A DNA stretch of 64,000 nt from Collinsella sp. An307 (GTDB lineage: Bacteria; Actinomycetota; Coriobacteriia; Coriobacteriales; Coriobacteriaceae). Made by a program: the position numbers and the translations under genes. The stretch is taken from positions 124,001-188,000 of the forward strand of contig NZ_NFIP01000002.1 in the NCBI RefSeq assembly GCF_002161805.1, written 5' to 3'. Within the stretch, counting starts at the first letter, position 1; each line of letters starts with the position of its first letter. Under the pieces are notes generated by a model. The model did not search any database. It was not told the DNA's origin and saw only the letters and a list, made by a program, of their open reading frames with translations. Of the stretch, positions 29,898 to 36,195 are shown piece by piece.

Positions 29898-30428
29898 GCG
29901 AGCGCAGTCTTACGCTGGCTGTTTCACGAGGCAAAATCCGAGGTAATGAACCCGCGAGGCACCTCATGCAAGAATCGAAGTAGTGAACCCGCGAGGCGAA
30001 TCTTGCAATAATTGAGGTAGTGAACCCCAAAATGCGCGATTCGGCGCCTTTCTTGACGTCGGGTTCACTACCTCAATTATTGCAGGCCTTCTATCTGCGC
30101 TTCTTTCGCGAGTTCTTTCTCGGGTTCACTACCCGGGTTCACTACTTCGATTTTTGCATGAAACGTGGCGCCAAGCACATGGGGCGCGGTGCCAGGCACA
30201 TAAAGCAAGGCGCCGGGTGCATGGGACACGGCGCTCTTTACGGTTTGCTTACGGCTGCTTTTCCGCTGCTCGCCTAGGAAAACCGGTCCTGCTGCCCGTG
30301 CTTTGCCCTCTTCGGCGCATGCGCAACCCTTACCGTTTCCCGGCAACCGATGACGCACCTTTTACGGATGTATGACACGCGAGCCTCACCATGGCGAGTG
30401 TTCGAATCCGTGAAAGGAGAATCGCATC
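29898..30428. repeat. Composite repeat locus A (core 29930-30158), no gene
   Basis: This 531-bp intergenic stretch contains no believable gene. Units of about 25 bases (TGCAa.. plus GAGGTAGTGAACCCG) lie forward at 29930, 29967 and 30004, then inverted at 30060 and 30134, with a 12-base partial unit at 30121. Starts differ by 37, 37, then 74 bases (2 x 37) between the two full inverted units. The pair 30004-30027 and 30061-30084 forms a perfect 24-bp inverted repeat around a 33-base loop. Next to it lies the 21-bp tandem repeat. 30235-30428 holds nothing I recognise beyond the GAAAGGAG ribosome-binding site of the next gene. Confidence 0.9.
30167..30229. repeat. 21-bp tandem repeat, three copies
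   Basis: GGCGCCAAGCACAT, GGTGCCAGGCACAT and GGCGCCGGGTGCAT start at 30167, 30188 and 30209, a regular 21-bp period. A truncated fourth GGCGC follows. An 85-residue open frame across the region is only a product of the repeats. Confidence 0.8.
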
Positions 30429-35914: not shown

Positions 35915-36195
35915 GGCGCCGCGCTTCATGCAAAAACTGAGGTAGTGAACCCTTGTTACGTTTTTTGCAAAAAATGAGGTAGTGAACCCGGTAATGAATA
36001 CGGGGGCAAACCCACTGGAAGAAGCACTGGTAGAGAGCCTGCAAAAATCGAAGTAGTGAACCCGGTGCCTAGAAAGGTGCTAAATCACGCATTATCGGGT
36101 TCACTACCTCAATTCTTGCAAGATTCGCCTCGCGGGTTCACTACCTCACTTTTTGCATGAAACTAAGAAGCGGGTTCACCACCTCGACTTTTGCC
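35915..36195. repeat. Composite repeat locus B (core 35966-36195), no gene
   Basis: The 542-bp gap between ugpB and the DUF1015 gene holds a terminator at each end and this repeat. Units lie forward at 35929, 35966 and 36040 and inverted at 36096, 36133 and 36171; start differences are 37, 74, then 37 and 38. Read on the + strand, the 230-bp core matches locus A read on the - strand: the same unit order, a 33-base central loop (23 of 33 identical by eye), the same spacer AGATTCGCCTCG, and a matching 49-base interval. Both cores are flanked by GGCGCC.CG.TTCATGCA. Confidence 0.9.

What the first reader, a model, noticed from the sequence alone, without database searches (positions are those of the whole stretch)
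29930..30158. Repeat units lie on a strict 37-bp lattice and are mirror-symmetric
Units with GAGGTAGTGAACCCG start at 29930, 29967, 30004 (steps 37, 37), then inverted at 30060 and 30134 (74 = 2 x 37). Locus B repeats this: 35929, 35966, 36040 (37, 74), then 36096, 36133, 36171 (37, 38). Forward units face inverted ones around a conserved loop, giving nested hairpins, the inner one a perfect 24 bp. Regular phasing (about 3.5 helical turns) with mirror symmetry suggests a protein-binding array or a structured RNA/DNA substrate rather than random REP scatter.
Basis: seen in the sequence. Interest (0 to 1): 0.72.

Follow-up and report, generated by a model that had tools for sequence, protein, structure and literature searches.

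The report
Fixed-length palindromic repeats in gut Coriobacteria
The two repeat clusters in the window are copies of a previously unreported DNA element, exactly 163 bases long here and 154 in a neighbouring genus, that is scattered between genes in many Coriobacteriales genomes, keeps its paired arms by matching changes on both sides, and holds a short near-constant core; what it does is not yet known.

Summary
The units at loci A and B belong to 163-bp oriented elements: U1, a 12/13-bp tandem partial, a linker with GAASCGCAGGTAGA, U2, then U3' (inverted). Step sizes are near-constant: 12/13, 61/62, 46, with optional flanking units at 37/38. The window genome has about 12 loci. Of 67 elements aligned from six species of the genus, 51 are 163 bp and 14 are 162. 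Related elements of exactly 154 bp occur in genus g3 (probably Collinsella), and weaker ones elsewhere in the order. Arms differ between genomes and between paralogues but still pair: covariation is far above shuffled and slid controls. The core AAAACCGCAGGTAGA was identical in all 13 aligned g3 elements. Mismatches show no G·U over A·C excess, so the constraint looks DNA-level rather than RNA. Loci are mostly shared between species, yet copies are replaced in place by other copies, and locus B is inverted in one relative. The resident RAYT transposase is not the driver, because several element-bearing genomes lack it. No Rfam family, phage, plasmid or indexed paper matched. I read it as a new variant of MITE/BIME-like interspersed palindromic DNA, probably a docking site for an unidentified factor.

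The parts
30000..30162 (-). Locus A: complete 163-bp element (orientation set by the linker motif)
   Evidence: R1 covariance model, 166 bits, E 1.3e-53
30134..30158 (-). U1 of locus A (TGCAAAAATCGAAGTAGTGAACCCG), the 5' terminal arm
30121..30135 (-). Partial tandem copy of the unit (GGGTAGTGAACCCG), 13 bp from U1
30090..30103 (-). Conserved core motif GAAGCGCAGATAGA in the linker (family consensus AAAACCGCAGGTAGA)
   Evidence: alignment A1; order-wide motif
30060..30084 (-). U2 of locus A; pairs with U3' over 24 bp
30004..30028 (+). U3' of locus A (inverted unit, closes the hairpin)
29930..29991 (+). Two extra outer units of locus A on the 37-bp step; the outermost is absent in relative G007
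35962..36124 (+). Locus B: complete 163-bp element; present but inverted in relative G002
   Evidence: R1 model, 145 bits; inversion
35966..35990 (+). U1 of locus B
36021..36034 (+). Core motif of locus B (GAAGCACTGGTAGA)
36040..36064 (+). U2 of locus B
36096..36120 (-). U3' of locus B
35929..35953 (+). Outer unit of locus B (37 bp before U1)
36133..36195 (-). Two outer inverted units of locus B (steps 37 and 38)

Best explanation
Loci A and B are copies of an interspersed, intergenic, non-coding DNA element found in several families of Coriobacteriales. Each copy is a fixed-length palindrome (162-163 bp in the window's genus, 154 bp in genus g3): two arms that must match each other, flanking a near-constant core (AAAACCGCAGGTAGA) at fixed distances. 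SHOWN by sequence: fixed length, compensatory arm changes, core conservation, multi-copy intergenic placement, mostly stable loci, occasional element-for-element replacement, one inversion, gain or loss of 37-bp outer units, no strand bias in mismatches. INFERRED: the element acts as DNA. Its inverted arms (as a cruciform/ssDNA hairpin, or as paired protein sites set by helical spacing) and its core are docked by a conserved factor that has not been identified. Copies are homogenised by exchange between copies and template switching in the palindrome; the family probably arose as a non-autonomous, MITE/BIME-like element. Its cellular role (chromosome organisation, transcription insulation, or selfish persistence) is open.
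For: Fixed geometry: 51 elements of 163 bp, 14 of 162, one each of 164 and 170, across six species of the genus, although clades share only about 50% identity; all 50 g3 elements extracted were 154 bp, as were nearly all listed model hits. Compensation: A3 covariation score 0.425 versus 0.198 shuffled and at most 0.105 slid; A1 U2-U3' 0.347 versus 0.170 shuffled and at most 0.139 slid. Core AAAACCGCAGGTAGA invariant in 13/13 g3 elements with differing arms and found with long arms in another family of the order (L220, L221). DNA level: G-U versus A-C mismatches 50:55 and 36:49, about 16:12 on the g3 outer helix (hand count). In-place evolution: orthologous loci; rpsL locus shared by four species with changed arms and kept core. 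Replacement: the G005 locus-B element is 96% identical to G000 L012 but 78% to G000 B. Inversion of B and loss of a 37-bp unit at A.
Against: No binding protein, transposase or excision event was found. Strict length would also fit a rigid RNA. The wobble test has modest power and its copies are related. A-tracts and T-tracts at the hairpin ends of the window copies resemble bidirectional terminators. The order-wide link rests on a short core plus arms, so some distant matches may be convergent.
Confidence: 0.58

Rival explanations
1. Structured RNA: each copy is transcribed (small RNA, 3' UTR module or bidirectional terminator) and the hairpin works as RNA.
For: Compensatory pairing; A-tract/stem/T-tract layout of the window copies; G-U exceeds A-C in the RNAalifold-chosen pairs of A1 and A3 (hand counts about 22:5 and 55:16), but that choice favours G-U by design.
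Against: With pairs fixed by geometry there is no G-U excess (hand count). No gene-orientation bias: divergent and convergent contexts 12 each (crude gene calls). Locus B lies between two likely terminators of its neighbours. No Rfam match.
Confidence: 0.2
2. Decayed non-autonomous transposon (MITE) of a DDE insertion sequence, without function, spread by past transposition.
For: Terminal inverted arms, multi-copy, intergenic, tandem clusters; MITEs can invert (Correia elements, PMC10969869).
Against: No target-site duplications noticed by eye at arm ends of the distant copies printed; arms vary between paralogues in one genome while the inner core is fixed, the reverse of transposase-end conservation; length kept over about 50% divergence; 15 of 17 tested loci shared between G005 and G006 or other relatives.
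Confidence: 0.14
3. REP/BIME repeats mobilised by the resident RAYT (Y1 HUH) transposase.
For: Within the genus the RAYT between gpmI and secG is present in the six genomes with the strong repeats and absent in three others; units contain GTAG.
Against: RAYT is flanked by a different repeat (TTTGGGGACGGGTTC) and carries no element nearby; G003, G027, G071, G075, G077 and G089 have element matches but no RAYT-type protein.
Confidence: 0.05

Closest known systems
Correia elements (Neisseria MITEs)
   Same: About 100-200 bp, terminal inverted repeats, intergenic, internal protein site (IHF), multi-copy, known to invert (PMC10969869)
   Different: In Correia elements the ends are the family signature; here arms vary but match each other, the inner core is constant, and length is fixed to a base or two
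BIMEs / REP and REPINs with RAYT
   Same: Alternating inverted units with defined spacers, GTAG within the unit, mosaic arrays
   Different: No linked RAYT; element much longer; defined by core and length rather than a short GTAG-tagged palindrome
GTAG-/TIR-type palindromic repeats ('TIRtrons', PMC3733652)
   Same: Long TIR repeats spread in genomes that hold RAYT-like genes
   Different: The local RAYT has its own GGGGACGGGTTC repeats, unlike the element arms
ERIC and pneumococcal BOX/RUP elements
   Same: Intergenic imperfect palindromes, modular, clustered
   Different: Compared from general knowledge only; the modules here are fixed in length and the core was found only in this order

Membership tests
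RAYT-mobilised REP/REPIN | Cognate RAYT gene flanked by the same repeats | tested here: not met
   RAYT flanks carry TTTGGGGACGGGTTC; no unit within its locus
RAYT-mobilised REP/REPIN | RAYT present in genomes that hold the repeat | tested here: not met
   Elements without RAYT in G003, G027, G071, G075, G077, G089
MITE of a DDE transposon | Terminal inverted repeats, small, non-coding, multi-copy | tested here: met
MITE of a DDE transposon | Target-site duplication and autonomous partner with the same ends | tested here: inconclusive
   None noticed at arm ends by eye; no systematic search for a partner
Structured non-coding RNA | Covarying stems | tested here: met
Structured non-coding RNA | Wobble excess on one strand | tested here: not met
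   50:55 and 36:49; about 16:12 on g3 outer helix (hand count)
Structured non-coding RNA | Transcription | not testable with these tools
   No expression data held
Known Rfam RNA family | Match at gathering score | tested here: not met
   (only a tRNA in the window; chance hits elsewhere)

The most novel reading that the evidence does not exclude
A Coriobacteriales-wide class of nucleoprotein DNA element: a dedicated, conserved factor recognises an invariant 15-mer together with inverted arms of arbitrary but matching sequence at fixed helical distances, so arm identity can drift freely within a genome while geometry cannot. It could organise the chromosome or serve as a folded recombination substrate.
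Probability: 0.2. Interest if true: 0.82.

Novelty: new variant of a known kind. Interest (0 to 1): 0.55.

Why it matters
Collinsella and relatives are common gut bacteria, yet these repeats, at roughly 10-30 copies per genome where detected, are absent from Rfam and from the papers I could search. The combination of variable but matching arms, a constant core and near base-exact length is unusual for interspersed repeats and points to a conserved recognition system that can be fished for directly. The elements also break assemblies, replace each other between loci and invert, so they bear on genome plasticity and typing.

Tried and rejected
(1) RAYT as driver: perfect co-occurrence within nine genomes of the genus, but a different flanking repeat, and elements without RAYT elsewhere. 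(2) Coding role for the 37-bp linker: an apparent ORF in some copies has stops or frame shifts in others; dropped from inspection. (3) Pure terminator role: copies lie in all gene orientations. (4) Rfam families: none. (5) Phage or plasmid carriage: none in the collections searched; six IMG/VR motif hits have arm scores at background level, so chance. (6) Motif outside the order: none in the phylum sample beyond one g3 genome. (7) My first U1-U3' column register was off by one; the +1 slide is the right one (79.7% paired, score 0.249). (8) Literature searches with the sequence strings and with Collinsella/Coriobacteria repeat terms found nothing relevant.

Full report
CHECK OF THE OBSERVATION. 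Both arrays exist as described. Twelve near-copies of GAGGTAGTGAACCCG lie in the window against 1.6 expected; none of 100 shuffles reached that number. The genome holds 51 copies with two or fewer mismatches, nearly all in about twelve clusters.

WHAT THE UNIT OF ORGANISATION IS. Laid on one register, the clusters share one plan: U1, a 12/13-bp tandem partial, 61/62 bp to U2, 46 bp to the inverted U3', and optional further units at 37 or 38 bp. Extra copies taken from five other species of the genus keep the same steps even where the unit has changed to GCGGCAATGAACCCG. The aligned element is 163 bp (A1). Of 67 elements extracted with model R1, 51 were 163, 14 were 162, one 164 and one 170. 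Between clades the median identity is about 50%, so length is kept far better than sequence.

WIDER FAMILY. R1 also found weak but architecture-like copies in genus g3. The constant part between arms is AACCGCAGGT(A), usually 7 nt before TGCA. With arms located independently, g3 elements are long hairpins carrying AAAACCGCAGGTAGA. Thirteen aligned copies show this 15-mer unchanged while arms differ, even between neighbours in one genome. Model R2 matched 56 of 299 genomes of the order, with strong hits (E below 1e-30) only in g3; only about ten candidates per genome were scored, so copy numbers there are lower bounds. A blast query with one g3 element gave 8-30 matches per positive g3 genome, fragments included. 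All 50 extracted g3 elements were 154 bp. Many g3 copies stand in tandem at 247-252 bp, a few at 259-260, with a conserved spacer of about 95 bp. Two further loci in another family of the order have the core between long arms (L220, L221). In a sample of the whole phylum a strict form of the core was found only in one g3 genome; that pattern also misses most true copies, so it limits but does not settle the range.

COVARIATION. A3: 93.5% of cells paired, 22 of 37 pairs with double changes, covariation 0.425 (shuffled 0.198; slid at most 0.105). A1 U2-U3': 82.9% paired, 0.347 (shuffled 0.170; slid at most 0.139). U1-U3' also pairs (79.7%, 0.249 in the correct register). Related sequences can exceed such shuffles without structure, so the slid controls and the differing arms of neighbouring paralogues carry most weight.

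DNA OR RNA. If one RNA strand were under selection, G-U should exceed A-C among mismatches on that strand. With pairs fixed by geometry the counts are 50:55 for U1-U3' and 36:49 for U2-U3'. For the outer helix of g3 I counted about 16:12 by hand. RNAalifold-chosen pairs gave G-U excesses, but that choice favours G-U by design, so I discount them. This favours DNA-level constraint without proving it. Gene orientation around the elements is not biased (a crude gene caller).

DYNAMICS. Most loci are orthologous among G000, G002 and G007, and most tested G005 loci (15 of 17) have an element in G006 or another relative at the same place. At the rpsL locus four species share the site, with altered arms and a kept core. 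Yet G005's element at locus B is 96% identical to G000's L012 element and only 78% to G000's own B, which indicates replacement by another copy. In G002 the B element is inverted between outer units; at A, G007 lacks one 37-bp unit and G005 lacks the element. Two contigs of the window's genome end inside one copy (56-bp overlap).

DRIVER. The Y1 (RAYT-like) protein between gpmI and secG matches Y1_Tnp, and a RAYT model below its cut-off. It tracks the strong repeats within the genus but carries other repeats at its flanks, and it is missing from several element-bearing genomes. I therefore reject it. No other driver was found; phage and plasmid collections are negative.

INTERPRETATION. The best-supported reading is an interspersed palindromic DNA element whose geometry, self-matching arms and core are selected. 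Docking of a conserved factor is inferred, not shown. RNA and inert-MITE readings remain possible at lower probability.

NOVELTY. Searches for the sequences and for repeats in Collinsella or Coriobacteria found no description, within an open-access library only. It resembles MITEs (Correia, which also invert; PMC10969869) and BIMEs, but differs in its constant core, free but matching arms and fixed length.

Noticed in passing
L067:1200-2260 (G000 C10, between gpmI and secG): Single-copy RAYT-like Y1 transposase flanked by TTTGGGGACGGGTTC repeats; related genes occur in most genomes of the family, often with other GGGGAC-type flanking repeats.
   Followed up: partly
L303, L304, L305, L306 (g3 genomes): Element clusters lie on both sides of a very large repetitive surface protein gene (VWA and Cna-B-like repeats) in L303; similar paired clusters 7-8 kb apart occur in many g3 genomes.
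   Followed up: partly
L239:1590-1933, L305:1153-1496 and others: The ~95-bp spacers between tandem 154-bp elements share a conserved stretch around CGGATCATTTTGG, giving a 247-252-bp composite period.
   Followed up: partly
window 30166-30245: Short GC-rich quasi-repeats (GGCGCCAAGCACATGGGGCGCGGTGCCAGGCACAT...) next to locus A, kept in G002 and G007.
   Followed up: no
G005 C12:190547-200724 (L113): This stretch of G005 is 86-89% identical to the window while the neighbouring stretch is 78%, suggesting horizontal exchange that includes the element at locus B.
   Followed up: no
G000 C13 end and C5 start (L017, L010): Two contigs end inside the same element copy with a 56-bp overlap, so the repeats break assemblies.
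   Followed up: yes
G003 loci L169, L182: About 151-bp palindromes with arms TGTGCAAAAATTGCGGTAGTGCACG and a core-like AAARCGCAGGAT; a related subfamily in a genome without RAYT.
   Followed up: partly
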